Shown: positions 10,427-63,704 of the stretch, piece by piece
How the letters are laid out: every line of letters begins with the position of its first letter
How positions within the stretch are numbered: position 1 is the stretch's first letter
Source of the DNA: Sulfurifustis variabilis
GTDB lineage: Bacteria > Pseudomonadota > Gammaproteobacteria > Acidiferrobacterales > Sulfurifustaceae
Length of the DNA stretch: 64,000 nucleotides
Assembly (NCBI RefSeq): GCF_002355415.1
Contig: NZ_AP014936.1
Location: forward strand, 806,001 to 870,000
Direction of reading: 5' to 3'
Position numbers and translations under genes: made by a program
The notes under the pieces: generated by a model
What the model was told of the DNA's origin: nothing
What the model saw: the letters and a program-made list of their open reading frames with translations, nothing else
Database searches by the model: none

Positions 10427-10510
10427 AGCGCCCTGCGTCACAGGCCGGGGTGGAGCCTTGAACAAGCTCCGGGGTCGACGAGCCCGGGAGCAGCCAGGAG
10501 GAGCCCGGAA

Positions 10511-12031: not shown

Positions 12032-12039
12032 CTCTTAGA

Positions 12040-13548: not shown

Positions 13549-13565
13549 AGAAGCAGGAGATTGGC

Positions 13566-15323
13566 ATGAGCGGACAACCGCGAGAGAAGGCAGTCCCGAC
13601 CCCCACACCGGCCGGCAAGGTGCGCATGACGCCGAGCGAGGCGCTGGTCGAGACCCTGGCCGCGCACGGCGTGGACAAGGTGTTCGGCATCGTCGGCTCG
13701 GCCTACATGGACGCGCTCGACATCTTTCCCGCCGCCGGCATCCGGTTCATCTCCGTCGCGCACGAGCAGAACGCCGCGCACATGGCCGACGGCTACTCCC
13801 GCGCGACCAACCGCCACGGCGTGTGCATCGCGCAGAACGGACCGGGCATCACGAACTTCGTCACGGGCATCGCGGCCGCGTACTGGGCGCACTCGCCGGT
13901 GGTCGCGATCACGCCGGAGACGGGCAGCCTGGGCGTCGGGCTCGGCGGCTTCCAGGAAGCGAACCAGATGCCGATCTTCTCCACCATCACGCAGTACCAG
14001 GTCCACGTGAACCACCCCGCGCGCATCGCCGAGCTCACGAACCGCGCCATGACCATCGCCATCAACGAGCGCGGCCCGGTGCAGATCAACATCCCGCGCG
14101 ACTACTTCTACGCCGACATCGAGGCGGAGATCCCGCCGGTCCAGTACCTCGAGCGCGGCCCGGGCGGCGCGCAGTCGCTCGACGAGGCGGCGCAGCTGCT
14201 CGCGCAGGCCAGGTATCCCGTCATCATGGCCGGCGGCGGCGTCATCATGTCGGGCGGCGTCGAGGAGGCGCGGCTGCTCGCCGAGTACCTGTGCGCGCCG
14301 GTGGTGACGAGCTACCTGCACAACGACGCGTTCCCGGCCTCGCACGAGCTCTCGACCGGCCCGCTCGGCTACCAGGGCTCGAAGGCCGCGATGCGGCTCA
14401 TCGCGAAGGCGGACGTGGTGCTGGCGCTCGGCTCGCGCCTCGGTCCTTTCGGGACGCTGCCCCAGCACGGCATGGACTACTGGCCGAAGGACGCGAGAAT
14501 CATCCAGGTCGACGCCAACCCGCGCATGCTCGGGCTGGTGAAGAAGATCGCCGTCGGCATCTGCGGCGACGCGCGGCAGGCGGCCGCGGAGCTGCTCGCG
14601 CGGCTCAAGGCCCAGAGGGGCCCCGCGAAGCGCAACGAGGCGCGGATCGCCGAGATCCGCCAGGCGAAGGAGGAGTGGGCGAAAGAGCTCGCCCAGTGGC
14701 CCTCGCCGTCCGAGAGCGGACGCATCGGCCCGCGTCAGGCGCTGGCGGCGCTCGCGAAAGCGCTGCCCCAAAACGCCATGGTCTCGACCGACATCGGCAA
14801 CGTCTGCTCGGTGGCGAACAGCTACCTCCACTTCGACCAGCCGCAGAGCTTCTTCGCCGCCATGAGCTTCGGCAACTGCGGCTACGCCTTCCCGACGATC
14901 ATGGGCGCGAAGGTCGCGCGGCCCGACCGGCCGGCGATCGCCTACGTCGGCGACGGCGCCTGGGGCATGAGCCTCGCCGAGGTGATGACCTGCGTGCGCG
15001 AGGACATCCCGGCGATCGCGGTCGTGTTCAACAACATGCAGTGGGGGGCCGAGAAGAAGAACCAGATCGACTACTACGGCAACCGCTTCGTCGGCACGAA
15101 CCTCACCAATCCCAACTTCGCCGAGGTGGCGAAGGCCATGGGCGCTGAGGGCGTGCGCGTCGACCACGTCGACCAGATCGGCGACGCGCTGGCCGCCGCC
15201 GTCAAGTCCAACCGCTGCACGGTGCTCGACGTGCAGCTCACGCGCGAGCTCGGCGAGCCGTTCCGCCGCGACGCCCTGAAGAAACCCGTGCGGTATCTCG
15301 CCAAGTACAAGGCGTATACGTAA
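13566..15323 (+). CDS. xsc: Sulfoacetaldehyde acetyltransferase
   Basis: A 585-residue thiamine-diphosphate enzyme that splits sulfoacetaldehyde with phosphate into acetyl phosphate and sulfite, the desulfonating step of taurine, isethionate and sulfoacetate degradation. The N-terminus MTPSEALVETLAAHGVDKVF and GIVGSAYMDALDIFPAAGI is diagnostic for Xsc rather than other ThDP enzymes. The activating glutamate is in AHEQNAAHMADGYSRA. The ThDP/Mg site begins GDGAWGMSLAEV and ends in FNNMQWGAEKKNQ. ATG at 13566 has a good ribosome site (AGGAGA). It follows the ligase gene after 17 bases, so the two are co-transcribed. Hairpin C follows the stop. Confidence 0.96.
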   Translation: MSGQPREKAVPTPTPAGKVRMTPSEALVETLAAHGVDKVFGIVGSAYMDALDIFPAAGIRFISVAHEQNAAHMADGYSRATNRHGVCIAQNGPGITNFVTGIAAAYWAHSPVVAITPETGSLGVGLGGFQEANQMPIFSTITQYQVHVNHPARIAELTNRAMTIAINERGPVQINIPRDYFYADIEAEIPPVQYLERGPGGAQSLDEAAQLLAQARYPVIMAGGGVIMSGGVEEARLLAEYLCAPVVTSYLHNDAFPASHELSTGPLGYQGSKAAMRLIAKADVVLALGSRLGPFGTLPQHGMDYWPKDARIIQVDANPRMLGLVKKIAVGICGDARQAAAELLARLKAQRGPAKRNEARIAEIRQAKEEWAKELAQWPSPSESGRIGPRQALAALAKALPQNAMVSTDIGNVCSVANSYLHFDQPQSFFAAMSFGNCGYAFPTIMGAKVARPDRPAIAYVGDGAWGMSLAEVMTCVREDIPAIAVVFNNMQWGAEKKNQIDYYGNRFVGTNLTNPNFAEVAKAMGAEGVRVDHVDQIGDALAAAVKSNRCTVLDVQLTRELGEPFRRDALKKPVRYLAKYKAYT

Positions 15324-15333
15324 TAAAGGGAAA

Positions 15334-15420
15334 ATGTTGAATGTTTAATGCTTGATTTTGAATTGAGGAGCGCGCAGCGCGCACTTCGATTGAACATTCA
15401 AAATTCAACATCAAGAATCG
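15334..15420 (+). repeat. Heptad-built intergenic inverted repeat, copy C (AT-rich class)
   Basis: The left arm (15334-15365) reads ATGTTGA, ATGTTTA, ATGCTTG, ATTTTGA, ATTG. The right arm (15389-15420) reads ATTGAAC, ATTCAAA, ATTCAAC, ATCAAGA, ATCG. The core between them carries GAGCGCGCAGCGCGCAC. The arm sequence is quite different from copies A and B, but the 7-base period, arm length of about 32 and GC core are the same. It lies between xsc and the tctC-like gene. Confidence 0.85.
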
Positions 15421-15449
15421 CGTCCCAACTTCCACCAAGGAGGAGCGTC

Positions 15450-16421
15450 ATGAGAAGCAAGCTGAAGTGCAGTCGCTGTTGGTTGCCCTTCGTCTCTGCG
15501 GTATCGGTACTGCTCGTCGGTTTCACGGCCCTGGCCCAGGACCGCTACCCCACGCGCGCCATCGAGTTCATCGTACCCTTCGGCCCGGGCGGCGGCGCGG
15601 ACCAGCTCGCCCGCCAGTCGGGCAAGCTGCTCGAGCCGATGCTCAAGGTCTCGATCCCCGTGCTCAACGTCCCGGGCGCGACCGGGGCAACCGGCATTTC
15701 CAAGCTCGTGGGCTCGGCCCCCGACGGCCACACCATGGCGATCTACATCGCCGACACGCACGCCCTGCTCGCGACCTCCAACCCCCCGTACACCATCGAC
15801 GACATCACGCCCGTCGCGCGCATGATCTCGGCGCCGTCGTTCCTGTTCGTCAAGCAGGACAGCCCGATCAAGAACTGGAAAGACTTCGAGAAGGCGGCGA
15901 AGGAGAAGCCGGGCGCGCTCAGGGTCGCGACGGTGGGCTACGGGAGCGTGGACGACATGACGCTCACCTTCCTGGAGAGCAAGGGAATCAAGGTCAATCA
16001 GGTCCCGTACCCGAAGCCGAGCGAGCGCTACGTGTCGGTGCTCGGCGATCACGTCGAAGCGCTCTACGAGCAGGCCGGCGATGTCGCGAGCTTCCTCAAG
16101 AACAAGCAGATGCGTCCGATCATCGTCTTCGGCGACAAGCGCTCGAGCGAGTTCCCCGACGTGCCGGCGTCGAAGGAGGTGGGCTTCGACATCGGCCTGC
16201 CGCAGTTCCGCTCGGTCGTGGTCCACGGCAAGACCGACCCGAAGGTCATCAAGGCGCTCTCCGATGCCTTCGCCAAAGTGGCGGCGACCCCGGAATACAA
16301 GAAGTTCCTCAAGGAGCAGATGGCGGCCGAGGACAGCCACATGCCGGCCGATGCGGCGGCGAAGTTCATGCGCGGCGAGCTCGAGACGATGAAGAAGCTG
16401 GCCAAGCCCAAGGGCAAGTGA
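15450..16421 (+). CDS. Tripartite tricarboxylate-type transporter substrate-binding protein (TctC family)
   Basis: A 323-residue periplasmic solute receptor of the Bug/TctC family. The signal peptide spans about residues 1-30 (WLPFVSAVSVLLVGFTALAQ). The mature protein starts DRYPTRAIEFIVPFGPGGGADQLAR, the classic receptor signature. It should capture the substrate for the membrane pair encoded just downstream. Given the operon, the ligand is expected to be sulfoacetate or a related sulfonate, which is an inference. ATG at 15450 follows a strong AAGGAGGAG site. The receptor gene comes directly after hairpin C, which may set the ratio of enzyme to transporter expression. Confidence 0.9.
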   Translation: MRSKLKCSRCWLPFVSAVSVLLVGFTALAQDRYPTRAIEFIVPFGPGGGADQLARQSGKLLEPMLKVSIPVLNVPGATGATGISKLVGSAPDGHTMAIYIADTHALLATSNPPYTIDDITPVARMISAPSFLFVKQDSPIKNWKDFEKAAKEKPGALRVATVGYGSVDDMTLTFLESKGIKVNQVPYPKPSERYVSVLGDHVEALYEQAGDVASFLKNKQMRPIIVFGDKRSSEFPDVPASKEVGFDIGLPQFRSVVVHGKTDPKVIKALSDAFAKVAATPEYKKFLKEQMAAEDSHMPADAAAKFMRGELETMKKLAKPKGK

Positions 16422-50118: not shown

Positions 50119-53100
50119 ATGCGCTCATCCGCATGGACGTGCGGGGGAGGGAGCCAGCAGGCTCCGTTGCTGACCAATCTTCGCCGTCGTCATTTTTTTC
50201 TGCGAGCAACGGCACTCGCCGTCGCCTTCGCTTTCCTCAATCTCTATCTCCAGCCTCTCGCGCTTGCCGCGAATCTTCCGGACTCACCCGAGACGCAAAC
50301 GCCTCGCGAGCCGACCAACGAAGAGAAGCTGAGCAAGAACCTCGAGACGATTGAGGCTCGCCTGGGCACGCTTGAGGCGAAGCTCGCCCGGGGCGAGGAT
50401 GCGAGCGCCGAAAAGCAGGCCTTGCAGGCAGCGCGCCAGGAGCTCGACGCGCTCGACACGCAGGCGCTCGCGGACTTCGCCGCCATAGAGGCGCGCCTGA
50501 AAGAGAAAAATCTCCCCGAGGTGATCCTGAACCGCCACTACGAAGCGGTGAACCAGTACAAGCAGGAAATGGCCGTGCTCAAGGCCAACCTCGACGAGCT
50601 CGACGCCGAGCCGACCGACGAGGGAAAGAAGCCCAAGGCACAGAAGGCCAGGGAGCATCTGAAGGCCAAGCAGAAGAAGAGGGGTCCAAAGACCAGGTTC
50701 GACCCGAACGACATGCCCAACAAGAGTCTCGAGGCCGACCCGAACAACAAGCCCAAGCTGACACCCGAGGAATTCACTCGTGCCGGGCTGCACAGCAACC
50801 CTTACGTCAAACTCGCCGCCCACGGCACTTACACTTTTGATCGACTCGCCGGTGCGAGTGACCCGGCCTACCTCACTGCGACGACAGAAGTTGTGCTTTC
50901 ACCGGCCATCCTGGCCAAGGCGGAGGAGCTGCAGCACAACCCCGTCGCGATCTACAACTGGGTGCGCAATAACGTCGAGTGGGTACCGAGTTGGGGCGCA
51001 ACACAAGATGCGGAGGTGACACTGGGTAGCCGCCGAGGGAATAGCTTGGACATCGCATCTCTTACGATCGCACTCCTTCGCGCGTCCGGCATCCCCGCCA
51101 GGTATGTGCACGGGACCATCGAAGTACCTGAAGACAATTTCAGGAGTTGGGCCGGTGGATTCAGCAATGTGACGGCGGCCGCAAACTTTGCATCCAGCGG
51201 TGGCATTCCCATAACCGGCATAACGACCGGGGGTCGGATCACTAAAGTGCAAATGGAGCACATCTGGGTCGAGGCAGCCATGGACTTCCGGCCGTCACGT
51301 GGTGCGGTCAACAGATCGGCTGATACCTGGGTCCCCTTGGATCCGAGCTACAAGGCCACGACGTTATCCGATGGTTTGGATGTCGCTGCGATTGCCGAAA
51401 TAGAACCAGCCGACATGTTCGAGTCGTTTCTGGCTAGTGGAACTACGAACGAAGAAGAAGCATGGGTCTCACAACTGAATCCGGCATCTTTGTCCGATAC
51501 TCAGGAGCAGGCAGACCAGGCTCTCGGTAGTTATTTGACGACTCTGCCGACAGCCACCGTGGGTACGGTGATGGGGGTGCGCGAGATCACAACGGATGTA
51601 AGAACGGTTCTGACCCAGTCACTTCCTTATGCCCTTAGGGTGATCGGTGCCCGGTACGGTTCGTTGCCAGAAACGCTGCAAAACCAGATGACGCTGGCAC
51701 TAGGGGTGGACATCTTGGGGGATCTAGTTGATTCCGTTACTTTCCCTTGGGCACGGGTAAACAACCACAAGGTAACTTTCTATTTTCGCCCTGCGACAAC
51801 CGCCGATGAGGAAACGCTGTTGTCGCTGATACCCGAGGATGCCACGGAGTTAAGCGATCTTCCCGCCTCCATTCCTTCGTATCTAGTTTATGTAGAGCCG
51901 ATATTGGCGGTTGACGGTCAGACGGTAGTGCAGGGTACCGCTATCCGGCTCGGGGAAGAGGTGCCGCTTGTCTACAGCACGACGCATCGCGGCACAAACG
52001 GTTCCATGGTTCGTCAGTACTCTGTTATCGCTGGATCCTATCTCAACATCACGATCACTGGTGGAAGCATTTCGCGGCTCAAAGTGGAAAATGTTGAGCA
52101 AAAGCTGGCGGAGGCGCGCTCGATCCTAAGCTCAGGAGACTCGGACGGCTTCGCGCTCTTATCCGGCGACAATCTTCTGGGAGACCTTTTCTTTGCCGCC
52201 GGCCTAAGTTATTGGGCGCAGTATCTCACTCAGTCCCATCTCGTTAGTGTTGCCGAGCGAGCCCGCCACGGGCTTCCAATGGGATTTGGATCGATAGGCT
52301 ACGAACCACACGTCCGCACATTTTTCGGTTTTCCGCGCGCAATAGAACGGGGGACCATGTCCGTAAACGTTTACCTGGCTTGGATCATTCAACATGCCGA
52401 TGGCGATAACTCCAAGAGATTGAGTCTTGGGTTACAGACGGGGCTATTGTCGTCAGCCCTCGAGCATGTAGTTCCGGAGACGGCGCTTTCGACGCCGGAG
52501 CGAGTGGTGCAAGGAATATCAGCTGCCAAGGCGTTAGCCATAGCGCAGGCCCAAGGGCAGCGTATCTATTACCTCACCCCGCAAAACCAGGCTTCCACGC
52601 TGCCGAATCTCGCACTGGATGCGTACTCGATGAGCGACATTCAATCAGCATTGGCGGCCGGGAAAGAAGTGCTTGCGCACACCAATCAGATTTCGATTAA
52701 CGGATGGGGGGGAGCCGGATATGTTCTCTTTGACCCCGTCAGCGGCGGAGGTACCTACAGGATCACTGGTGGGCTGAATGGCGGCGATTTGCCATGGGGC
52801 GACTGGGCATGGGACCTGGCCGGCGCCTCAATGGATATTTACAAGCTGTTTGAAAGGCTACGAAGGACACCGCCCAGGCTTGAGTTGACGGCTGCCGTGA
52901 TACAAGCAACGGACAAACTGATCGACGGCCTTGTTAAAGGAACGGTTCGCGTTGCAAAAGTTCAGGCAATTGAACATGGAAACCTGACGAGATCATGTCT
53001 CACTGAGACCCAGGCAGCGTCGCTCAAAAGCGCTCTATCAGCGATCCATAGTTTGTCTTGGGTCAATCGCATCCCCGGTATATCTGCGCCCGGTGCGGGC

Positions 53101-53208
53101 TACGCAACGAGGCTGGGCCAGTATATCGCGTACATGTATGTGCTTTTCACAATGATTCATTTCATGAACTTGAACGATGCGCTGGAAGAGTGCCCACAAA
53201 CGCCGTAG
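50119..53208 (+). CDS. Large secreted transglutaminase-like protein with replaced catalytic cysteine
   Basis: A 1029-residue protein. A hydrophobic export segment lies at about 29-50 (RATALAVAFAFLNLYLQPLALA). A coiled-coil region follows at about 65-200 (KNLETIEARLGTLEAKLARG). The transglutaminase-like core is at about 270-420: NPVAIYNWVRNNVEW, RRGNSLDIASLTIALLRASG, IPARYVHGTIEV, MEHIWVEAAMDF and WVPLDPSYK. The His and Asp of the triad are kept, but the position usually held by Cys is Ser (RGNSLD). The next 600 residues match nothing I recognise; a hydrophobic helix lies near the end (YIAYMYVLFTMIHFM). From about 50850 on, codon use becomes much less GC-rich than in the first 700 bases. A small membrane protein gene begins 3 bases after the stop. 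It may be a secreted effector or part of an export/processing system; neither is shown. Confidence 0.7.
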   Translation: MRSSAWTCGGGSQQAPLLTNLRRRHFFLRATALAVAFAFLNLYLQPLALAANLPDSPETQTPREPTNEEKLSKNLETIEARLGTLEAKLARGEDASAEKQALQAARQELDALDTQALADFAAIEARLKEKNLPEVILNRHYEAVNQYKQEMAVLKANLDELDAEPTDEGKKPKAQKAREHLKAKQKKRGPKTRFDPNDMPNKSLEADPNNKPKLTPEEFTRAGLHSNPYVKLAAHGTYTFDRLAGASDPAYLTATTEVVLSPAILAKAEELQHNPVAIYNWVRNNVEWVPSWGATQDAEVTLGSRRGNSLDIASLTIALLRASGIPARYVHGTIEVPEDNFRSWAGGFSNVTAAANFASSGGIPITGITTGGRITKVQMEHIWVEAAMDFRPSRGAVNRSADTWVPLDPSYKATTLSDGLDVAAIAEIEPADMFESFLASGTTNEEEAWVSQLNPASLSDTQEQADQALGSYLTTLPTATVGTVMGVREITTDVRTVLTQSLPYALRVIGARYGSLPETLQNQMTLALGVDILGDLVDSVTFPWARVNNHKVTFYFRPATTADEETLLSLIPEDATELSDLPASIPSYLVYVEPILAVDGQTVVQGTAIRLGEEVPLVYSTTHRGTNGSMVRQYSVIAGSYLNITITGGSISRLKVENVEQKLAEARSILSSGDSDGFALLSGDNLLGDLFFAAGLSYWAQYLTQSHLVSVAERARHGLPMGFGSIGYEPHVRTFFGFPRAIERGTMSVNVYLAWIIQHADGDNSKRLSLGLQTGLLSSALEHVVPETALSTPERVVQGISAAKALAIAQAQGQRIYYLTPQNQASTLPNLALDAYSMSDIQSALAAGKEVLAHTNQISINGWGGAGYVLFDPVSGGGTYRITGGLNGGDLPWGDWAWDLAGASMDIYKLFERLRRTPPRLELTAAVIQATDKLIDGLVKGTVRVAKVQAIEHGNLTRSCLTETQAASLKSALSAIHSLSWVNRIPGISAPGAGYATRLGQYIAYMYVLFTMIHFMNLNDALEECPQTP

Positions 53209-53211
53209 CCG

Positions 53212-53724
53212 ATGTCGACGCAGCTAGAAGCCATGACTCCGTTCGCGCTAGCGAAAATGTTGCTGGTCGTGATCGCAACGTCGTGGATTTTCCATGCGAT
53301 CGGAGGTGTGATCGCTCCGGCGAACAGCGAAGGCTTCGCTTGGGTCGGGGCTGCAGTCGCGAGCCTGGCAATAGTGCTTTTCGTCGTTCTTACAAGAGCA
53401 AGTGAACGCGTCTTTATCTTCATCGGCGCGATGCTTACCACCTCGATTGTGGTCGGAGCTGGAGTCTATGCGGCTACTTATCCGTGGTTATGGGTGGGGC
53501 TGGTCAGTGCCAACGTGCCGGTGTGTCTCCACATAGCTCATCGACTTTTTGATGATCGAGATGATTTTCTGTTTAGTTTGAGCAGCGCGTTCAAAGGTGA
53601 AGGTATTCCACAAACACACGAAGAAGGAATGGCGGGTCTCAAGGGTCTGCTCTTTCTAATCGCGTGCGCGATGGGTATCGCTGCAGAATACCAATTGGTC
53701 GTGTTTCTTTTCCTGAACCCGTAG
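53212..53724 (+). CDS. Small four-helix membrane protein, coupled to the transglutaminase-like gene
   Basis: A 170-residue protein with four hydrophobic segments (ALAKMLLVVIATSWIFHAIGG; GAAVASLAIVLFVVLT; MLTTSIVVGAGVYAATYPWLW; GLLFLIACAMGIAAEYQLVVFLF). No family is recognised. It starts 3 bases after the upstream stop and shares its low GC content, so the two were probably acquired together. In polymorphic toxin loci a small membrane protein in this place is often the immunity protein; here that is only a hypothesis. The ribosome site overlaps the end of the previous gene. Confidence 0.6.
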   Translation: MSTQLEAMTPFALAKMLLVVIATSWIFHAIGGVIAPANSEGFAWVGAAVASLAIVLFVVLTRASERVFIFIGAMLTTSIVVGAGVYAATYPWLWVGLVSANVPVCLHIAHRLFDDRDDFLFSLSSAFKGEGIPQTHEEGMAGLKGLLFLIACAMGIAAEYQLVVFLFLNP

Positions 53725-53769
53725 ATCCTTGGAGCTGTGCAAGAACGAAGAGAAAAAAGGGGCGGATTC

Positions 53770-53838
53770 ATGGCTAGGATATTCGTCCTTCTGTACGGCG
53801 CCGTTACGGCTACTGCTATGGTGCAGAGCTTTTTATAG
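53770..53838 (+). pseudogene. Possible 5' remnant of an MddA/NnrU-type membrane methyltransferase gene
   Basis: A 22-codon frame starts at an ATG with GGGG/GCGGA before it. Its first 13 residues (MARIFVLLYGAVT) resemble the N-terminus of isoprenylcysteine-methyltransferase-like proteins such as MddA, which usually continue with a hydrophobic FLYAIGF block. Here the frame changes character and stops at once. It could be a decayed stub left by recombination, or a chance mini-ORF. Confidence 0.25.
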
Positions 53839-54011
53839 CTAAAAAAATGGAAACCGACGCTTTGTTCCTATCGTTGCCAAAGCAAACGCAAGTAAACGGG
53901 GACCGCCAGCACACGGGGACAGATTCTTTTTTAGAACGATAAGAACGATCTAGATAGCCGGGCAAAAAAGGGCCTGGTCGACGGAAATAAGAATAACGGG
54001 GAGCAGGGCGA
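53839..54011. other. AT-rich spacer with a GGGGAC-type repeat remnant
   Basis: This is the least GC-rich spacer in the window. At 53898-53929 the sequence has GGGGACCG and, 17 bases later, GGGGACAGATTC, a motif type often seen in REP-like elements of proteobacteria, followed by a T-run. Only fragments are present, with no clear paired element. Confidence 0.35.
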
Positions 54012-57000
54012 ATGGGCTCGCGACAGGGGAGACGGGGAGGATTGGTGAGAAGGCTCGGTGTGGCTGCGCTTGCGGCGTGGCTTGTCGTGCCGTCCCCGGC
54101 TCTCGCTGGTGTACCCGAAGCCATCGGCTGGCTCGCGACACAGCAGAATGCGGACGGCAGTTTCGGCGGAACGCCGGGTTCGCTCGCAACCCCGGTCCAG
54201 TCCACTGCCGAGGTTCTGCGCGCGTACCAAACCGTCGGTCAGCAGAGCCAGCCGCCGTACGCACCCGCGCTCGCCTACCTTAATGGTGACACCGAAGAAA
54301 ACACGGAGTTCCTCGCCCGTAAGATCGTGCTGAATGCCGCGGCGGGCGGCGACGTCTCGGCGCTCGTCACTGCACTGCTTGCGCATCAGAACGCCGACGG
54401 CGGCTTTGGCGATCGGGCGGGGCATGACAGCACGGTATTCGACACCGGGTATGCGCTCGAAGCGCTGGCGGCTGCCAACTACACCTCGGGAACCTTTGTC
54501 GGTTATGCCGTCGGCTATCTGCTGAACAGGCAGTCCGCCGCCGGCGGTTGGGCGGACGGCGGGAACGCCGCCTCGGTGTTCACGACCGCCCAGGCGATGC
54601 GCGCGCTCTGGCCGTATCGCAACGCGTTTCTCGGTGTCTCCGCCTCCCTGACGGCGGCACAGAACTTCCTTCTGGCGCAGCGCGGCACGGATGGCGCCTG
54701 GAGCGAGCCGTTCGAGACGGCGCTCGCCCTGCGCGCGATCGTGCCGAACGCCACAGATCTCGCGCTCGTCGAAACGAGCGTAGCCGGTCTCGAAGCGGCG
54801 CAGCTCGCCAACGGCTCCTGGGTCGACGATGCGTACACAACCGCGCTCGCGTTGCAGGCGATTCAGGCTTACCAGGCGCGTAAGGGCGGCGCAGGCCCGA
54901 CGCTCACGGGTGCGATCAGCGGCTACGTTGTTCGCGCCGGCTCGACCGAACCGATTGCCGCCGCGCAGGTCGCGCTCGCCGAGCGCCTCGGCGTATCGGT
55001 TCTTACCAATGGCGACGGCTACTTCCTGATCCCGAACGTGCCGGCCGGCGATTACACCGTCACGGCCGGAAAGAGCGGCTACACGACGGCAAGCCGTGCG
55101 GTCACGGCCGCGGCCGGGCAGGTGACGCTCGCGGGCGCTCTCGTGCTCGATCTCGCCACGCAGTCGGGGCTCGCCGCAGGCCGTATCTTCGATGCGCAGG
55201 ACCTCACGGCGCTCGCGGGCGCCGCGGTGACGCTGACCGGCGGGGCGACGTACACGGCGGTGAGCGGCACCGACGGGAGCTTCAGCTTCGGCCCGCTCGC
55301 GCCCGGCGACTATGGCGTGTCGATCGCCAGGAGCGGCTACGACACCGTCACGGGCAGCGCGACCATCGTCGGCGGGCAGACGCTCACTATCAACCAGGGC
55401 CTGGTCAGGGCGGGCGGCTTCCAGGACGCCGAGCCGGCCACGATCACGGGAGCGGTCGCGAGCGCGACGACCGGCCTGCCGATCGCCGGCGCGGTATTCG
55501 ACCTCGGCGGCGGTCTCACCGCCACCAGCGGGGCGGACGGGCAGTTCGCGATCGCCTCGGTGCCGCGCGGTAACTACACCGCCACGCTCTCTGCGGGCGG
55601 CTTCGTCGCGCAGACTTATATAGTGAGCTTCCCCGCCGGCAGTCTCGGCAACCTCGGGACGCTCTCTCTTTACCCGGCGAGCGCAGCCAGCGCCCCGACC
55701 ACACTCGCCCTGAACGGCACCGTGGTCGACGGCGTGAGCGGCGCGCCCATTGCGGGCGCGACGGTGACGCTCACCGATACCGGTGCGACGGCGACGAGCG
55801 GTATCGACGGTCGCTTCCTGCTCGATGGCATCACTCTCACGAGCTTCAGCCTCACGGCGTCGGCGACCGGCTACCAGACGCGCACGGCGATGATCCAGGT
55901 GAGCGCGTTCGGCGAGGCGCAGGTGAGCCTCGCGCTCTCGCCGCCGGGAAGCGGCGCCACGGCGACGAACCTGCAGGGCGTGGTCCGCGATGCAACCAGC
56001 AGCGCACCCGTTGCGGGCGCGCGCGTGAGCATCGAGGGCACCACGCTCACGACCGTCAGCGATGCCACCGGCAACTACACGCTGAGCGGCATCGAGCCGC
56101 TGAGCTTCACGGTGTCGGTCGCGGCGGTCGGTTACGCGCAGGCACAAGGGAACATCACCCTCGCGAGCCACGGCAATTACACCCTGGATCCGCTCCTCCA
56201 TCCGCTGGCGGCCACGAGCTTCCAGGTGCTGTCGGTGAGCGCCAACCCGGCGAGCGCCGGCGCCAACGAGACGCTGCTATTCACCGCCGAGATAGCGAGC
56301 CTCCTGAGCGCACCCAAGGCGGCGCTGGTGACGGGCGAAGTGCTCGACGCCACGGGTACGTCGGTCGCGAACCTCACGCCGTACGCCGAAGGCACGACGA
56401 CGCCCGCGAGCGAGTTCAGTTTCGCCGCCGGGGAGACGAAGACGCTGACCCTGCCCTGGCCCACCGCGCAGCTCGCACCCAGCACGTACACCGTACTGGT
56501 TCGGGTCGTCGAGCCCGGCACGATCTACGCCTCGCGCCCGCGCGGCGAGATCCTGGCGGAAGGCGGCGGCTACGGCGCCATCGTGGGATCGAGCCGCATC
56601 GCCGGTGCGATGGCCATCGATCCGCCGCTCGCGCAGGCCGGGACAACGACCCCGGTCAGCTTCACGGCCCTGGTGCAGAACGGGGGTAACCTGCCGCTCG
56701 CGGAAGGCAGTTACGAGCTGACGGTGACGCAGCCGGATACCGGTACGCTGGTGCACAGTGCGGTGACCACGGCCGGCGGCATCGAGGTCGGGCAGCACGC
56801 GACGGTCGCCTTCGGCGGCTGGGTGCCGACCGCGACCGGCGACCTCGACGTGCGCGTGCGCTCACTCGCGGCCGGCGTGGCGGGCGAGATTGCCGGGAGT
56901 CTTTATGTCGGCGACCGGGCGAGCGGATCGTTCACCGTCGATCGAAACATCGTGCGCGAAGGCACCTCGACGGTTCGTGGCCGGGTCGCCATGCAGGGCG

Positions 57001-60000
57001 TGGACGTCCGCACCGGAACGAGCACCGACCCGCTCTTCGCGCTCGTGAAGGAGGCGGTGCGCAGGGGCGGTCTCTATACCGCGCCGGGCGGGACCAACTG
57101 GCACCGGACCAACCGTTGCCTCGGCTGCCATATCCAGACGCAGAGCGTATACGGGCTTGCCAGCTCGCTCGACAAGGCGGACGTCGACAGGCAGGCGGCA
57201 CTCTTCCTCTACAACGCGATTGCCGGGAGCCAGCAGTCCGACGGCGGTCTGCGCATCTCGCACCCGCAGCACACCAAGACGCAGACAACGCTCGGCCTCT
57301 GGTCGCTCAGCGCCTGGCCGGACAAGCTCGGCTCGTTCCGCGCCAAGTATCATGCGGCGCGGCATCTGCACGATCGCCGCCTCAACAGCGGAAGCGTCAC
57401 GTTCTGGCGCAACGACCATGCGAGCGCCGGCTGGTGGGTGTCGGACGTCTCGCATACGGCCTTGACCGTTACCGGCATGGCTGACCTCGTGCGCAGCGCG
57501 GACACCATCGATCTCTCACAGGTACGGCAGGACACGCTGAGTGAATCGCTGACCCTGGGCGGCGGCACGGAGCCGCGCGACCTCGCGCTCGGCGCCGACG
57601 GGGCCCTTTATGTCCTGAAAGCGAACGGCCAGATCAATCGCATCGATTTCGCGAGCGGGCAGACGACGACGGTGGTGACCGGCCTTCCCAACCCGAGCTT
57701 CGGCCTGGCGATCGCGCCCGATCAGAGCTTCCTGGTCAGCACCGAGACGGCCACGGGGCAGATCATCCGCGTCGCGCCCGACGGTTCTCGCAGCACGATC
57801 TACAGTCAAAGCGGGGTATTGCGGGACATCGAGTTCGGTGCCGACGGTTTCTTGTACGTCGCCGATTACCCGCGCAATCGCATCCTGCGGCTCACGTCGG
57901 CCGGGCAGGTCGTGAGTACGATCACCAGTGGGTTGTTCAACCGGCCGTCGGGGCTGCTCGCTCGCGCCGACGGCAGCGTCCTCGTCGCGAACCGCGATGC
58001 GTTCAATATCCTGCGGATCGCGAGTGACGGAACCGTCTCCATTCATACCGACGGTTTCTCTTTCCCGCCTTTATGGTTGGCCGATGCCCCTGACGGCAAC
58101 ATGTATGTATCCACTGCCGATTACAGCAACAGCGGCCAGTCCACGCCCGTCGGTCTCTCCCGTGTCGATCAATCGGGCATCGTGGAACGGGTCGCCGTCG
58201 GGGCCCTCTATCGACCGCTGCTGACGATCGACCAGACCGTCTGGGTAGCGAACGGCACGACGAACCGCCTGAATCAGATCGTTCCGGGTGTGCAACCGAC
58301 CGATCTGCTGCCTGCCTTCCGCACGGACATCGACCGTGCCGCCAGGTACTTCCTCGGCAACCACCGGGACAACTCGGGCGACAACGCCGTCCAGGCGATG
58401 CGCCTCGCCGGCATGGCCGAGGCGCGCTCGGTCACCGCCGACGCCACGTTGCGCGCAGACCTCGATACCGCGATCGCGTTCGCCGCCAACCTCCTGCGCT
58501 CGCGCCAGCGCGCCGACGGCGGCTGGGGGCGTTCCATCAATCAGGCGAGCGACCCGCTGATCACGGCCATGGTCGGCATCGCGATCGACTACACCGATCC
58601 GTCACCCGACGATCCCGCCGTGCGCCGGACCATACAGTATCTGCTCAACACGCAGGCCGGCGACGGATCCTGGAACAACGCCAACAACGGCCTGACCACG
58701 CGCCTCGCGTCCACCAGCTTCGTCATGGCCTACCTGCCGAAGGCGCTCGAGCGCCTCGGCGGCATCGACGTCGACCTGCACGTGAAGCTGCCGGCGAACG
58801 TGCAGCTCGCCAATCCCTCGATCGCGCCGACCACGGTGATCCCCGGCGTGGATGTGGAGTACATCTGGACGCTGCTCGGCGTGACGAGCGCCGGGCGCAA
58901 TGTCGAGTTCGATCTGACGCTGCTCGACATGCAGCTGAACGAAACCCGACCCGTCGCCACGGCGGCCTATCTCGAGTTCGACAACTCGTTCACGGCGGAA
59001 AAGCTGCAGATCGCGCTGGAGGTCCCGACGGTGCGGGCGGCGGCCGACATGGCGCTCGCCGTGTCGACCGACCGCCAGAACTACCAGCCGAACGAGTCGG
59101 TCTCGATCGGCGCCGTGGTGTCCAATACCGGACCGACGATCGCCTCCGGCGACGTGCGCCTGTCCATACGCGCCCCGGGGAGCGAGGTCGATTTGGCGCT
59201 GCTTCCGTCGATTCCGGTCAGCGATCTCGCTGCCGGCGCGCAGGTCGCGTATCCCGGCGAGTGGAACACGGGCAGCACGCTCGCCGGTGCCTACGAGGTC
59301 TACGGACGGCTCTACGACACCCAGGGACGCTTCCTGTCCGAGAGCCGCGCGCCGTTCAACATCGGCGCGCCCGCGGTGACGGTCGCGACGGGCGTCGCCA
59401 CCGACAAGCCGTCTTACGACGCGTGGGACACCGTGCAGATCGAGGGCCGCGTGCAGAATGTGGCGCCCAACGCCGTGCTCGCGCCCTCGCGCGTCGAAAT
59501 CACCGTTCGCTCGCCCGCCGGGCAGGTGCTTTATTTCGATACGCGCGATTTGGGCGAGCTCATGCCCGGCGCGCTGCGCGACCTGCCGTTCCCGATGACG
59601 CTCGCCGACGCACAGAGCGGCACCTATCCGGTCGAGCTCAAGCTCAAGGACCTGTTCACGCGCACGCTGTTGAGCACCAGCACCACCTCGTTCCAGGTGG
59701 TGCGGCGCGAGCTCCAGGCGATCAGCGGGACGGTCAGCGTGCAGACGCCGTCCGTGTACCTCGGCGATGCCAACGCCTGCACCGAGACCGCCAAGAACGT
59801 CTCCGCGACGGACCTCGCGAACGTCAAGCTGATCCATCAGCTGATCGACATGGGCAGCGGCGCGCTCGTGGACGAAGCCACCGAAACGGTGAACCTCCCG
59901 GCCGGCGGGCTGGTGTACAGCTACTTCCGCAACATCGACTCGAACGCGCTCGGTCTCGGCGGCTACAGCTGCGTGATCAAGGCCGAGCTGAACGGGGAGG

Positions 60001-61808
60001 AGAGGACGCTCGCCTTCGGCGGCTTCCAGGTCGTCCCACCCCCCATTCGCATCGACGCCGCCCTGGCCCTCGGCCCCCGCGGCCGCCTCCTCGTGCTGCT
60101 CGACAACGGCGGCTCGGGCCCGAACGCCGAGCCCTGCTCGAGCGTCACGAGCCTCTCGCTCGCGACGAGCTTCGTAGGCTTGAGCCCCGCGGCCGCCCTC
60201 GAAGCGCGCCTCTACGACGGCACGGGCGTGCTCGTCGACACCGAGACCGCCGCGCTCGCCTCCTTCGCGGGCGAGGTCGATACCGCCCCCGGCGGCACCG
60301 GCGCGAACCTGGTGTTCGCCGAGCTCACCGCCCAGTCCGCCGTCCTGCGGGTGGATCCGCTCGCCCCGGGCACGCCCCTCGGGGCGGGCTACCGCCTCGA
60401 CCTCGTCGTCACCGACGGCAGCCCCCTGATCGTCTCGAGCGGGCTCATCCACACCGACTGCTCCCAGACCATGCAGGTCGGCGACCTCTACGGCGCCTTC
60501 GCCGTCACGGCGCTGACGGCCGTGCCCGCGACCGACAACGCCTACCGCGACGACGACCCGCACGGGCCGCAAGACTCGCCCGGGCTCCTCGCCCAGCGCC
60601 GCTTCCTCGAGCGCCTGCTGACCGCCGCCGGCTGGTCCTACACGATCACCGACACGGCCGAAGCCTTCACCCGCGAGCTGCGCACCGGGGGCTACCGCAC
60701 CTACGCGCTCTTCGACGAGCAGGAGAAGCTCCCCGTCGACGTGCAGAAGGAGCTGCGCGAGGCCGCCTTCCGCGGCGAGGGCCTGCTCCTCGCCGGCAAC
60801 CACGACGCGCGCCACCACAAGCTCCTCGACGCCGCCGGCGTGAAGCTCATCGGCAACGTGAGCCACGCCGTCACCGCCGAGCACGAGCCAAGCCCGCTCG
60901 CGCTCGCCGGCGGCATCGGCCTCTATCCCCTCGACAAGGCGCTGCGCATCAAGCGCCTCACCGCCGACCGCTTCGCGAGCTACCTCACGAGCGGCCCGAG
61001 CCACGACAAGAACGATCCCAACGACTGCCGCGACCAGGCGCCGCTCTACGACAACGGCATCCCCGCCGCCCGGCCCGTCGACGAGTGCGAAGGCGCCCCC
61101 GACGCCTACCTCGACGCCGCGACGTTGAACGGCTACGGGCGCGGGCGCGCCGCCTTCGTCGGCGTCGACCTCCTCGCCCTCGCGACCCGCGACGGGGACG
61201 CGAGCCTCGCCGCCGCGACGATCCTCAAGGCCCTCGCCTGGGTGAGCCCGGGCGAGCCGGCCTACACGGTCGGCGCGGTCGTGCCGATCCGGATCACCCT
61301 GACGAACCAGGGCATCGCCACCGTCGCGAGCGTGACGCTACAGGCCGCCAACCTCGCCTTCGTCGACCTGCGCGAAGGGAGCCTCGTCGACGACGCCACC
61401 GTCGTCATCGACGTCGCCCTCGCCGTCGGCGAGACGAAGACCCTCGACCTCTGGGTGCGCCTGGCGAATCTCCCCGGCCCCGCGAGCCTCACCGCCACGG
61501 TCACCGCCCCCACGGTCGGCCTCGTCGCGAGCGCGGTCTACCCCCTCGAGGCCGTCCAGCCCGAGACCCTGGGCAGCATCAAGGCGCGTCTCGACGCCCT
61601 CATCGGCGCCAACCACCCGGACCGCCACGCCCTCGAGCTCGCCGCCGCCGACCTCGAGCGCGCGCTCCAGAACTTCGACCCGGCCAGAGCGATCGCCGAC
61701 GTGCTCAAGGCGACCGACGCGCTCCTCGGCCTTGCCGATCCCGCGATCGTCGACATCCGCGCGGCGCTGGGCACGTGGGTGGGGTGGGCGGGGGCGTATG
61801 TGTATTAG
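54012..61808 (+). CDS. Giant secreted multidomain protein: alpha/alpha-toroid, beta-sandwich repeats and a beta-propeller
   Basis: A 2598-residue protein with a signal peptide (VAALAAWLVVPSPALA). Domains in order, approximate residues: 35-290, a prenyltransferase/squalene-cyclase-like alpha/alpha toroid with repeated QNADGSFGG, QNADGGFGD, SAAGGWADGG motifs; 300-735, five carboxypeptidase-regulatory-like sandwiches (SGYVVRAGSTEPIAAAQV; TSGIDGRFLLDGI); 740-985, Ig/CARDB-like domains; 1010-1170, first half of a second toroid with C1036-L-G-C1039-H1040 and QQSDGGLRIS; 1180-1430, an NHL-type propeller (ALGADGALYVL; FGADGFLYVADYPRNRIL); 1440-1590, second half of the toroid (RQRADGGWGRS; QAGDGSWNN); 1590-2150, more Ig-like domains; 2170-2410, a glutamine-amidotransferase-like Rossmann unit (LLLAGNHDARHHKLLDAAGV); 2415-2510, an Ig-like domain; then a helical end. 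The CxxCH could bind haem c. No membrane anchor is seen. Codon GC rises after about 60000. Confidence 0.8.
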   Translation: MGSRQGRRGGLVRRLGVAALAAWLVVPSPALAGVPEAIGWLATQQNADGSFGGTPGSLATPVQSTAEVLRAYQTVGQQSQPPYAPALAYLNGDTEENTEFLARKIVLNAAAGGDVSALVTALLAHQNADGGFGDRAGHDSTVFDTGYALEALAAANYTSGTFVGYAVGYLLNRQSAAGGWADGGNAASVFTTAQAMRALWPYRNAFLGVSASLTAAQNFLLAQRGTDGAWSEPFETALALRAIVPNATDLALVETSVAGLEAAQLANGSWVDDAYTTALALQAIQAYQARKGGAGPTLTGAISGYVVRAGSTEPIAAAQVALAERLGVSVLTNGDGYFLIPNVPAGDYTVTAGKSGYTTASRAVTAAAGQVTLAGALVLDLATQSGLAAGRIFDAQDLTALAGAAVTLTGGATYTAVSGTDGSFSFGPLAPGDYGVSIARSGYDTVTGSATIVGGQTLTINQGLVRAGGFQDAEPATITGAVASATTGLPIAGAVFDLGGGLTATSGADGQFAIASVPRGNYTATLSAGGFVAQTYIVSFPAGSLGNLGTLSLYPASAASAPTTLALNGTVVDGVSGAPIAGATVTLTDTGATATSGIDGRFLLDGITLTSFSLTASATGYQTRTAMIQVSAFGEAQVSLALSPPGSGATATNLQGVVRDATSSAPVAGARVSIEGTTLTTVSDATGNYTLSGIEPLSFTVSVAAVGYAQAQGNITLASHGNYTLDPLLHPLAATSFQVLSVSANPASAGANETLLFTAEIASLLSAPKAALVTGEVLDATGTSVANLTPYAEGTTTPASEFSFAAGETKTLTLPWPTAQLAPSTYTVLVRVVEPGTIYASRPRGEILAEGGGYGAIVGSSRIAGAMAIDPPLAQAGTTTPVSFTALVQNGGNLPLAEGSYELTVTQPDTGTLVHSAVTTAGGIEVGQHATVAFGGWVPTATGDLDVRVRSLAAGVAGEIAGSLYVGDRASGSFTVDRNIVREGTSTVRGRVAMQGVDVRTGTSTDPLFALVKEAVRRGGLYTAPGGTNWHRTNRCLGCHIQTQSVYGLASSLDKADVDRQAALFLYNAIAGSQQSDGGLRISHPQHTKTQTTLGLWSLSAWPDKLGSFRAKYHAARHLHDRRLNSGSVTFWRNDHASAGWWVSDVSHTALTVTGMADLVRSADTIDLSQVRQDTLSESLTLGGGTEPRDLALGADGALYVLKANGQINRIDFASGQTTTVVTGLPNPSFGLAIAPDQSFLVSTETATGQIIRVAPDGSRSTIYSQSGVLRDIEFGADGFLYVADYPRNRILRLTSAGQVVSTITSGLFNRPSGLLARADGSVLVANRDAFNILRIASDGTVSIHTDGFSFPPLWLADAPDGNMYVSTADYSNSGQSTPVGLSRVDQSGIVERVAVGALYRPLLTIDQTVWVANGTTNRLNQIVPGVQPTDLLPAFRTDIDRAARYFLGNHRDNSGDNAVQAMRLAGMAEARSVTADATLRADLDTAIAFAANLLRSRQRADGGWGRSINQASDPLITAMVGIAIDYTDPSPDDPAVRRTIQYLLNTQAGDGSWNNANNGLTTRLASTSFVMAYLPKALERLGGIDVDLHVKLPANVQLANPSIAPTTVIPGVDVEYIWTLLGVTSAGRNVEFDLTLLDMQLNETRPVATAAYLEFDNSFTAEKLQIALEVPTVRAAADMALAVSTDRQNYQPNESVSIGAVVSNTGPTIASGDVRLSIRAPGSEVDLALLPSIPVSDLAAGAQVAYPGEWNTGSTLAGAYEVYGRLYDTQGRFLSESRAPFNIGAPAVTVATGVATDKPSYDAWDTVQIEGRVQNVAPNAVLAPSRVEITVRSPAGQVLYFDTRDLGELMPGALRDLPFPMTLADAQSGTYPVELKLKDLFTRTLLSTSTTSFQVVRRELQAISGTVSVQTPSVYLGDANACTETAKNVSATDLANVKLIHQLIDMGSGALVDEATETVNLPAGGLVYSYFRNIDSNALGLGGYSCVIKAELNGEERTLAFGGFQVVPPPIRIDAALALGPRGRLLVLLDNGGSGPNAEPCSSVTSLSLATSFVGLSPAAALEARLYDGTGVLVDTETAALASFAGEVDTAPGGTGANLVFAELTAQSAVLRVDPLAPGTPLGAGYRLDLVVTDGSPLIVSSGLIHTDCSQTMQVGDLYGAFAVTALTAVPATDNAYRDDDPHGPQDSPGLLAQRRFLERLLTAAGWSYTITDTAEAFTRELRTGGYRTYALFDEQEKLPVDVQKELREAAFRGEGLLLAGNHDARHHKLLDAAGVKLIGNVSHAVTAEHEPSPLALAGGIGLYPLDKALRIKRLTADRFASYLTSGPSHDKNDPNDCRDQAPLYDNGIPAARPVDECEGAPDAYLDAATLNGYGRGRAAFVGVDLLALATRDGDASLAAATILKALAWVSPGEPAYTVGAVVPIRITLTNQGIATVASVTLQAANLAFVDLREGSLVDDATVVIDVALAVGETKTLDLWVRLANLPGPASLTATVTAPTVGLVASAVYPLEAVQPETLGSIKARLDALIGANHPDRHALELAAADLERALQNFDPARAIADVLKATDALLGLADPAIVDIRAALGTWVGWAGAYVY

Positions 61809-62059: not shown

Positions 62060-62974
62060 ATGCGTAACGCGCGTTCCCTCATTCTCGGCGTCTGTCTGGC
62101 TTCGCTGACGGCGGCCGGCGCCGCGCAGGCGGCCAAGAACGAGGCGCCTGCCAAGCCCCAGACCGAGATGGAGGCGGCCTTCGCGGCGGCGAACGCCGTC
62201 GCGCAGCACGGCCCGGGCGAGGTCAAGCTGGGCGACCAGGCGATGCTCGAGCTGCCCAAAGGATTCGTCTACGTGCCGCCCAGGGAGTCGGGCAAGCTGA
62301 TGCACGCGATGGGCAACCGCACCGGGGACGATCTGCTCGGGCTCGTCTTTCCGGCCAGCGACGAAAACTGGTTCGTGGTGATCCGGTTCGATCCCGCGGG
62401 CTACATCAAGGACGACGACGCGAAGGACTGGGACGCGGACGAGCTCCTCGCCTCGCTCAAGGCGGGGACCGAAGAGGCGAACAAGGAGCGCGCGGCGCGC
62501 GGCATCTCGGCGGTCGAGGTGGTCGGCTGGGTGGAAAAGCCCCACTACGACGCGGCCTCCCACCAGCTCGTCTGGTCGATCGCCGCGAAGGACAAGGGCC
62601 AGCCGGACACGGCCGACCAGGGCATCAACTACAACACCTACGCGCTCGGCCGCCACGGCTACATCAGCATGAACCTCGTCACCGACCGCAAGCTGATCGG
62701 CCAGTACAAGGCCGCGGCGCGGACGCTGCTCGCGAACCTCGACTTCAACGACGGCAAGCGCTACGCCGACTTCGACGCGTCGACCGACAAGGTCGCGACC
62801 TACGGGCTCGCCGCGCTGGTCGGCGGCGTCGCCGCGAAGAAGCTCGGCCTCTTCGCCGCGCTCGGCGTGTTCCTCGCGAAGTTCTGGAAGCTGATCGCGA
62901 TCGCCCTGTTCGCCGGCGGCGGCGTCCTGACGAAGGTGTTCAAGCGCCGCAAAGAGGGTGACATCGCCGCCTGA
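62060..62974 (+). CDS. DUF2167 family membrane protein
   Basis: A 304-residue protein with a signal peptide (SLILGVCLASLTAAGAAQAA). The soluble DUF2167 domain contains GEVKLGDQAMLELPKGFVYV, GLVFPASDENWFVVIRFDP, GYIKDDDAKDWDADELLASL and NTYALGRHGYISMNLV. Two membrane segments follow near the C-terminus (LAALVGGVAAKKLGLFAALG; LIAIALFAGGGVLTKVF), ending in a basic cytosolic tail. Family function is unknown. GGGAGG precedes the ATG. The next gene, an M50-type protease, overlaps the 3' end if its upstream GTG is used. Confidence 0.9.
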   Translation: MRNARSLILGVCLASLTAAGAAQAAKNEAPAKPQTEMEAAFAAANAVAQHGPGEVKLGDQAMLELPKGFVYVPPRESGKLMHAMGNRTGDDLLGLVFPASDENWFVVIRFDPAGYIKDDDAKDWDADELLASLKAGTEEANKERAARGISAVEVVGWVEKPHYDAASHQLVWSIAAKDKGQPDTADQGINYNTYALGRHGYISMNLVTDRKLIGQYKAAARTLLANLDFNDGKRYADFDASTDKVATYGLAALVGGVAAKKLGLFAALGVFLAKFWKLIAIALFAGGGVLTKVFKRRKEGDIAA

Positions 62975-63704
62975 CGCCTGCGGCGTGAAGACCCTGCTGT
63001 TCCTGCTGAGCGCGCTCAAGCTCGGCAAGGTCCTGACCACGGGCGGCACCATGGTGCTGTCCGTGTTCGCCTACGCGCTCATCTTCGGCTGGTGGTACGC
63101 GGTCGGCTTCGTGCTGCTCATCTTCGTGCACGAGATGGGCCACTACGTCGCCGCCCGCCGGCGCCGGCTCGAGGTGGGCGCGCCCACGTTCATTCCGTTC
63201 GTGGGCGCGTGGATCGAGCTCAAGCAGCTTCCGCACGACGTCGAGACCGAGGCCTACGTCGGCATCGCCGGCCCGCTCGCCGGCACGCTCGGGGCGCTCG
63301 GCTGCTACTTTCTCGCGCGCGACCTGGACAGCTCCCTGCTGCTCGCGCTCGCCTACGCGGGGTTCTTCATCAATCTCTTCAACCTCATTCCGCTGTCCCC
63401 GTTCGACGGCGGACGCATCACGGCGATCATCTCGCCGCGCGTCTGGCTGCTGGGCGTGCCGATCCTCGTCGCGCTCTTTTTCTACCGACCGAGCCCGCTG
63501 CTCATCCTCGTGGCGATCCTCGCGGCCCCGCAGGTGTGGAAGGCCATCAAGCACGACCCGGACACGCCCGAGAACGCGCGGTACTACGACGTGCCCCTCG
63601 AGACGCGCCTGCAGTACGGGTTCTTCTACCTCGCGCTCGCCGGCTTCCTCGCCATCATGGCCCACGACGTCCACGAGATGCTCGGCCCCGCCCTGCGCGG
63701 CTGA
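62958..63704 (+). CDS. M50-type site-2 membrane metalloprotease
   Basis: A protein of up to 248 residues. The zinc motif sits in a membrane helix, LIFVHEMGHYVAARR (HExxH), and the second metal motif is NLIPLSPFDGGR (the LxPxxxxDGG form of site-2 proteases). Other hydrophobic helices lie at VLSVFAYALIFGWWYAVGFVLL, LAGTLGALGCYFLA and ILVALFFY. Such enzymes cut within the membrane plane, often in signalling. Start options are GTG 62958, which overlaps the DUF2167 gene by 17 bases, or GTG 62985; the former has AAGAGG directly before it, the latter has no ribosome site. With the DUF2167 gene it forms a two-gene unit. Confidence 0.85.
   Translation: MTSPPDACGVKTLLFLLSALKLGKVLTTGGTMVLSVFAYALIFGWWYAVGFVLLIFVHEMGHYVAARRRRLEVGAPTFIPFVGAWIELKQLPHDVETEAYVGIAGPLAGTLGALGCYFLARDLDSSLLLALAYAGFFINLFNLIPLSPFDGGRITAIISPRVWLLGVPILVALFFYRPSPLLILVAILAAPQVWKAIKHDPDTPENARYYDVPLETRLQYGFFYLALAGFLAIMAHDVHEMLGPALRG

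What the first reader, a model, noticed from the sequence alone, without database searches (positions are those of the whole stretch)
54012..61808. 2598-residue secreted protein with a propeller inserted in an alpha/alpha toroid
The second toroid appears split: its first half (about 1010-1170) and second half (about 1440-1590) flank an NHL-type beta-propeller, with long arrays of beta-sandwich domains on each side and an amidotransferase-like unit near the C-terminus. I do not know of this domain order. A role as a cell-surface scaffold or capture machine is a guess.
Basis: partly seen in the sequence, partly recalled or inferred. Interest (0 to 1): 0.65.

Follow-up and report, generated by a model that had tools for sequence, protein, structure and literature searches.

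The report
Giant partner of polymorphic toxin system
A very large secreted bacterial protein, built from a ring-shaped domain with a propeller inserted halfway round it, is encoded beside what looks like an interchangeable antibacterial toxin and its antidote, and probably serves as the toxin's surface scaffold.

Summary
The 2598-residue ORF (54012-61808) is real. The split second toroid holds up. An NHL/virginiamycin-B-lyase-type propeller (1165-1428) sits between two half-toroids (996-1164, 1429-1587), and four orthologues in other genera keep this order with an invariant RC[LFY][GA]CH[IV]QTQ motif. Half 2 is a toroid by profiles. Half 1 is one by weaker homology. AlphaFold resolved only the propeller. 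The 50119 gene is a secreted transglutaminase-fold protein without its catalytic Cys, of the kind Zhang et al. 2012 described in polymorphic toxins, here without RHS repeats. Relatives end in swappable C-termini (NucA/NucB DNase, NlpC/P60, DUF6310), with a SUKH immunity gene in one and tandem orphan C-terminal cassettes in others. The window's toxin tip and the 170-aa membrane protein after it lie in the lowest-GC stretch of the window. Toroid partners occur in 15 of 369 sampled gammaproteobacterial genomes, inactive transglutaminases in 25, both in 13 (expected 1; p 1.7e-15). Best explanation: the giant protein is the scaffold and target-recognition partner of a two-protein polymorphic toxin, with split toroid plus propeller as one of several exchangeable middle modules. 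The link is genomic. Delivery, toxicity and any haem are inferred.

The parts
54012..61808 (+). giant secreted partner protein, 2598 aa
   Evidence: ORF; orthologues of 2611 and 2594 aa aligned end to end
54012..54110 (+). Sec-type signal peptide, residues 1-33
   Evidence: read from sequence (RR, hydrophobic core, ALA-G); hydrophobic segment 16-34
54111..54887 (+). N-terminal alpha/alpha toroid, residues about 34-292; the conserved hallmark of the partner family
   Evidence: Pfam Prenyltrans/SQHop_cyclase; profile A4 finds it in 15 of 369 genomes at E<1e-20
54903..56216 (+). five CarboxypepD_reg (transthyretin-like) repeats, about 298-735
   Evidence: Pfam 1.4e-59
56229..56966 (+). CARDB-like beta-sandwich domains, about 740-985
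   Evidence: alignment with orthologues; family HMM hits in orthologues
56997..57503 (+). first half of second toroid, residues 996-1164
   Evidence: orthologues G666/G610 score 19.3/15.7 bits against N-toroid HMM, best of 5000 shuffles 10.5
57117..57131 (+). CLGCH motif (C1036, C1039, H1040), within NRCLGCHIQTQS, invariant core in five orthologues
   Evidence: CxxCH in 5 of 20000 shuffles of the protein
57504..58295 (+). inserted six-bladed NHL/Vgb-type beta-propeller, residues 1165-1428 (modelled about 1185-1395)
58296..58772 (+). second half of second toroid, residues 1429-1587
   Evidence: Pfam SQHop_cyclase_C/N, PDB 8pak 7.7e-14
58773..60071 (+). CARDB/MG2-like beta-sandwich array, about 1588-2020
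   Evidence: CARDB and MG2 hits; conserved 'mg' module across family
60072..61286 (+). class-I amidotransferase-like domain with a ~140-aa insert (about 2036-2180) that relative G031 lacks; no catalytic Cys seen
   Evidence: sequence comparison; GxCxG absent; fold assignment inferred
61287..61805 (+). DUF11-like sandwich and C-terminal helical tail
   Evidence: Pfam DUF11 E 0.018, below cut-off; conserved in A2
50119..53208 (+). secreted inactive-transglutaminase protein, 1029 aa: signal peptide, coiled coil, TGase domain 266-409, motif GAGYVLFDPVSGGGTYRITGGLNGG, then variable tip
   Evidence: Pfam Transglut_core 1.5e-17; S where 3isr and active enzymes have Cys
52786..53208 (+). candidate C-terminal toxin tip of the TGase protein (140 aa, no known family)
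   Evidence: divergent after shared motif in relatives; GC 0.53; no Pfam hit above cut-off
53212..53724 (+). candidate immunity protein, 170 aa, about four transmembrane segments
   Evidence: 3 bp after the TGase stop; GC 0.528; hydropathy; no family hit; by position like the SUKH gene in G199

Best explanation
The giant protein is the conserved partner of a two-protein polymorphic toxin system. Both proteins are exported by Sec (signal peptides seen). The smaller one carries an inactive transglutaminase fold, which Zhang et al. suggested anchors toxins by binding peptides, and ends in an exchangeable toxin tip neutralised by the small gene after it. In relatives with long RHS-type toxins the toxin brings its own filament; here it does not, and the giant partner's arrays of beta-sandwich domains probably supply the scaffold that displays the toxin outside the cell. 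The middle of the partner is an exchangeable module and probably the target-recognition part: split toroid with NHL propeller here, other propellers, FG-GAP propeller, vWA or Ig-like domains elsewhere. Shown: domain order, gene pairing across genera, loss of the TGase Cys, variable tips, orphan tip cassettes, SUKH immunity in one relative, anomalous GC of the window's tip and candidate immunity gene. Inferred: physical interaction, surface display, recognition, toxicity, and the role of the CxxCH motif.
For: Every short (coiled-coil, non-RHS) TGase locus in the class sample lies beside a partner gene or its C-terminal part: window, G020, G075, G165, G199, G225, G320, G390, G409. Several are separated by a few bp or overlap. 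Genome co-occurrence 13 seen against 1.0 expected, Fisher p 1.7e-15. Long TGase genes also have a toroid gene next to them in 8 of 12 testable loci, and a named plasmid of Spartinivicinus ruber has a squalene-oxidase-repeat protein 48 bp before an RHS/TGase/Hint toxin. In G156 the GATase-like part of the partner and the TGase domain are read in one ORF. TGase Cys replaced by Ser/Ala, His and Asp kept. Toxin-type tips: NucA/NucB 4.1e-14, NlpC/P60 2e-7, DUF6310 6.2e-14; SUKH-1 gene 5.9e-9 after the NucA/NucB tip. Tandem orphan tip cassettes in G409 and second copies with other tips in G075 and G225. GC of tip and 170-aa gene 0.53 against 0.687, the lowest of the window. Partner of G224 has an IPTL-CTERM sorting signal above cut-off. 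Inactive TGases in polymorphic toxins: PMC3482391.
Against: The window's own toxin tip and candidate immunity protein match no known toxin or immunity family. Two strong-scoring toroid partners (G198, G293 contig 28) have no TGase gene beside them, and four of twelve long TGase genes have no toroid neighbour. Adjacency does not prove binding. In the window (and G017) the order is toxin, small gene, partner, with a 287-bp gap before the partner in the window, and the partner gene has host-like GC while the toxin gene does not, so the two may have different histories. No outer-membrane export route was identified for either protein.
Confidence: 0.6

Rival explanations
1. The giant protein is an independent surface adhesin or S-layer-like scaffold that uses its toroids and propeller to bind polysaccharide or protein, and sits next to the toxin genes only because both belong to a horizontally exchanged surface-protein island.
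For: Carboxypeptidase-regulatory, CARDB and propeller arrays are common in adhesins and S-layer proteins (partial match to the Kustd1514 S-layer family). Host-like GC of the giant gene against low GC of the toxin gene. Two toroid partners without a TGase neighbour.
Against: The pairing recurs in many families with co-directional, nearly touching genes, and domains of the two genes are fused in one ORF in G156.
Confidence: 0.25
2. The giant and TGase proteins form a trapping machine like bacterial alpha-2-macroglobulin: toroid as a thioester-type domain (C1039-x-x-Q1042), MG-like sandwiches, capture of proteases or rival proteins.
For: MG2 match 6.4e-7 though below cut-off; weak TED_complement matches to N-terminal toroids of relatives; CHIQ/CHVQ conserved in five orthologues.
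Against: No CxEQ motif. The first Cys and the His are equally invariant, which a thioester does not need. The motif-bearing toroid is present in only part of the family.
Confidence: 0.07
3. The second toroid is a covalent c-type haem protein and the giant protein takes part in extracellular electron transfer or redox sensing rather than in a toxin system.
For: Invariant CxxCH, very unlikely by shuffling; genome encodes cytochrome c assembly proteins; protein is exported.
Against: Only one CxxCH in 2598 residues, no second invariant His or Met as distal ligand among the conserved columns, and most family members lack this toroid.
Confidence: 0.05

Closest known systems
Inactive-transglutaminase RHS polymorphic toxins (Zhang et al. 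2012, PMC3482391)
   Same: Secreted protein with an N-terminal transglutaminase domain lacking a catalytic residue, variable C-terminal tip, immunity gene after it in relatives
   Different: No RHS array in the short toxins seen here; a giant toroid-bearing partner is encoded next door, which that paper does not mention (no hits for prenyltransferase, toroid, CARDB or NHL)
Bacterial teneurin-like proteins (Raoelijaona et al. 2026, PMC13018210)
   Same: Secreted polymorphic toxins with transthyretin-like domain, six-bladed NHL propeller, variable tip and immunity gene
   Different: There the propeller is in the toxin itself and packs on a YD shell; here NHL and transthyretin-like domains lie in a separate partner protein and there is no YD shell
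Squalene-hopene cyclase / prenyltransferase alpha/alpha toroids (PDB 8pak, 2sqc)
   Same: Fold and repeat motifs of half 2 and of the N-terminal toroid
   Different: No DxDD catalytic motif; secreted; one ring interrupted by a propeller
Bacterial alpha-2-macroglobulins
   Same: Toroid plus strings of macroglobulin-like sandwiches
   Different: No CxEQ thioester motif; domain order different; MG2 match below cut-off

Membership tests
[quoted passage not shown]
   Transglut_core 266-409, signal peptide in first 50 residues
Inactive-transglutaminase polymorphic toxin (window gene 50119-53208) | One or more catalytic residues (C, H, D) lost | tested here: met
   Cys replaced by Ser (GNSLD); His and Asp kept
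Inactive-transglutaminase polymorphic toxin (window gene 50119-53208) | RHS repeat array after the transglutaminase | tested here: not met
   No RHS hit in Pfam or NCBIfam; RHS present in the long S. ruber relative
Inactive-transglutaminase polymorphic toxin (window gene 50119-53208) | Variable C-terminal toxin domain | tested here: inconclusive
   Met in relatives (NucA/NucB, NlpC/P60, DUF6310); window tip matches no toxin family
Inactive-transglutaminase polymorphic toxin (window gene 50119-53208) | Immunity gene directly downstream | tested here: inconclusive
   SUKH gene in G199; in the window a 170-aa membrane protein of no known family
Squalene/oxidosqualene cyclase or prenyltransferase enzyme | Toroid fold | tested here: met
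   Pfam and PDB matches
Squalene/oxidosqualene cyclase or prenyltransferase enzyme | Catalytic DxDD motif | tested here: not met
   Absent from the whole protein
Alpha-2-macroglobulin | CxEQ thioester in a TED toroid | tested here: not met
   No CxEQ; CHIQ instead
c-type cytochrome domain | CxxCH haem-binding motif in an exported domain | tested here: met
   CLGCH 1036-1040, invariant in five orthologues; signal peptide
c-type cytochrome domain | Covalent haem and axial ligand | not testable with these tools
   No conserved second His/Met found; needs spectroscopy
Teneurin-like protein | FN-plug, NHL and YD shell in one chain | tested here: not met
   NHL yes; no RHS/YD repeats in P0001 or P0002

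The most novel reading that the evidence does not exclude
A two-protein class of polymorphic toxin in which a giant toroid-bearing partner replaces the RHS filament and carries an exchangeable recognition head; in one branch the head is a ring interrupted halfway by a propeller and bearing a covalently bound haem or an internal thioester at the invariant CxxCHxQTQ site.
Probability: 0.3. Interest if true: 0.8.

Novelty: new variant of a known kind. Interest (0 to 1): 0.62.

Why it matters
It would add a conserved second component to a widespread but little-studied group of toxin systems, show that a toxin's delivery scaffold can be supplied by a separate protein, and give a testable role to giant secreted proteins annotated only as 'prenyltransferase/squalene oxidase repeat' or 'carboxypeptidase regulatory-like'. 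The propeller inserted in the middle of a toroid is also an unusual fold nesting, with a conserved cofactor-like motif.

Tried and rejected
Single-sequence AlphaFold of 985-1600 and of half 1 alone: propeller resolved, halves not. Profile alignment of the joined halves to the N-terminal toroid spans the junction, but column-shuffled controls reach the same score in a few of 100 runs, so it was dropped as evidence. Pfam finds nothing in half 1 of any of three orthologues tested. Search for an uninterrupted toroid with the CxxCH motif found none in 249 genomes of the phylum or in plasmids. No match of the partner's C-terminal part in plasmids. PHROGs and Rfam gave nothing. Promoter/terminator scan no better than chance. 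Literature searches found no report of the toroid/inactive-transglutaminase pairing in the open library; subscription papers were not searchable.

Full report
Observation. The ORF at 54012-61808 encodes 2598 residues with a Sec signal peptide. Pfam and PDB profile searches give, in order: an alpha/alpha toroid, five carboxypeptidase-regulatory repeats, CARDB-like sandwiches, an NHL/virginiamycin-B-lyase propeller, a squalene-cyclase-like toroid segment, a CARDB/MG2-like array, and a DUF11-like domain before a helical tail. An amidotransferase-like domain is visible only by comparison of orthologues. It has no nucleophile motif.

Split toroid. The genome holds one copy. Full-length orthologues occur in G017 (same family) and G020 (same order), and shorter ones in G610 and G666 of another family of the class. 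In all five the order is half-toroid of 165-173 aa, propeller of 253-264 aa, half-toroid of 156-159 aa. Half 2 is a toroid segment by Pfam (1.5e-7) and by PDB (8pak 7.7e-14). Half 1 gives nothing in Pfam, but its G666 and G610 versions score 19.3 and 15.7 bits against an HMM of N-terminal toroids from other proteins, while the best of 5000 shuffled sequences reached 10.5. I read about six helices on each side, as a 12-helix ring would need; this count is by eye. AlphaFold without an alignment built only the propeller, six blades at block pLDDT about 57-88, which Foldseek matches to virginiamycin B lyase and NHL domains. A joint profile alignment of both halves to the N-terminal toroid was not better than shuffled controls. 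So the split is well supported by homology and lengths, not by a structure.

Motif. Half 1 carries RC[LFY][GA]CH[IV]QTQ[SA] in all five orthologues; in the window C1036, C1039, H1040, Q1042, Q1044. CxxCH arises in 5 of 20000 shuffles of the protein. The protein is exported and the genome encodes cytochrome c assembly proteins, so a covalent haem is possible. The spacing C1039-x-x-Q1042 also recalls macroglobulin thioesters, but CxEQ is absent. Neither is shown.

Neighbour. The 50119 gene encodes a secreted 1029-aa protein with a transglutaminase domain (1.5e-17). In all six aligned relatives the catalytic Cys is Ser or Ala while His and Asp remain; PDB 3isr has Cys at that place. The alignment runs to a motif like GAGYVLFDPVSGGGTYRITGGLNGG, after which the C-termini differ. 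Identified tips are a NucA/NucB nuclease (4.1e-14), NlpC/P60 (2e-7) and DUF6310 (6.2e-14); the first is followed by a SUKH-1 immunity-type gene (5.9e-9). G409 has five short downstream genes repeating the 3' end of the TGase gene, most with other tips, and G075 and G225 have second TGase copies with other tips. These are the hallmarks of polymorphic toxins, and inactive transglutaminases in such toxins were described by Zhang et al. 2012 (PMC3482391), always with RHS repeats after them. The window's toxin has none.

The window's own tip matches no family. It and the 170-aa, roughly four-TM protein 3 bp downstream have GC 0.53, and the stretch from about 52800 to 54000 is the lowest in the 64 kb (mean 0.687, sd 0.046), whereas the giant gene has 0.695. 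This fits a recently exchanged toxin/immunity cassette beside a resident partner gene. It is suggestive, not proof.

Pairing. In an even sample of 369 genomes of the class, N-terminal toroids of this type (E<1e-20) occur in 15 and inactive TGase genes (E<1e-30) in 25; 13 genomes have both, 1.0 expected, Fisher p 1.7e-15. Of the strong toroid genes with enough flank, nine of eleven have the TGase gene next to them; one of the nine (G120) is divergently oriented, and G198 and G293 contig 28 are the exceptions. All nine short TGase loci have the partner or its C-terminal part beside them. Long TGase genes (ORFs of about 1200-3600 aa) have a toroid gene beside them in 8 of 12 testable loci. A named record, Spartinivicinus ruber plasmid pA, shows a squalene-oxidase-repeat protein 48 bp before an RHS/TGase/Hint toxin. 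In G156 the amidotransferase-like part and the TGase domain share one ORF. The phylogenetic dependence of these genomes was not modelled, so the p value is only a guide.

Exchangeable middle. Partners share the N-terminal toroid, carboxypeptidase-regulatory repeats and C-terminal sandwich array, but the middle differs: split toroid plus propeller (window, G017, G020, G610, G666), propeller arrays (G031, G156 contig 132), FG-GAP propeller (G260), vWA (G320, G199), Ig-like domains (G075). This suggests a recognition head on a common scaffold. The G224 partner has an IPTL-CTERM sorting signal above cut-off, and G610/G666 end in a hydrophobic segment followed by arginines (read from sequence), so at least some partners are anchored at the cell surface.

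Mechanism. I propose that the giant protein displays and aims the toxin: the toxin's inactive transglutaminase fold binds the partner or another surface peptide, the sandwich array gives reach, the middle module recognises a target, and the tip enters the target cell. Domain order and pairing are shown; binding, display, recognition and entry are inferred. Confidence 0.6 for the partner role, about 0.9 for the inserted propeller.

Novelty. Inactive-transglutaminase polymorphic toxins are known, so this is a variant of a known kind. I found no open-access report of the giant toroid-bearing partner, of non-RHS members relying on it, or of the propeller-interrupted toroid.

Noticed in passing
window 53725-54011: The 287-bp gap before the giant gene has GC 0.49 and contains a 'GGGGACAGATTCTTTTTT'-type sequence resembling REP/RAYT transposon remnants (from memory, not tested).
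   Followed up: no
L070 (G409) 6420-15501: TGase toxin gene followed by five short genes that repeat its 3' end, most with other tips: a large store of orphan toxin cassettes.
   Followed up: partly
L116 (G666) 402-6782: TGase toxin gene broken into several frames, with further tip cassettes and an inverted copy of its 5' part: a rearranging locus.
   Followed up: partly
L065/L096 (G293 contig 28): ORF of over 6100 aa with the same toroid and sandwich array, no TGase gene within the 13 kb examined after it; not resolved further.
   Followed up: partly
L069 3796-6966 (G225): Second TGase toxin with a tip containing GNGVYFTDP, which resembles ADP-ribosyltransferase toxins by eye; no Pfam match.
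   Followed up: no
window 62201-63704: DUF2167 gene followed by an M50-peptidase-like gene downstream of the giant gene.
   Followed up: no
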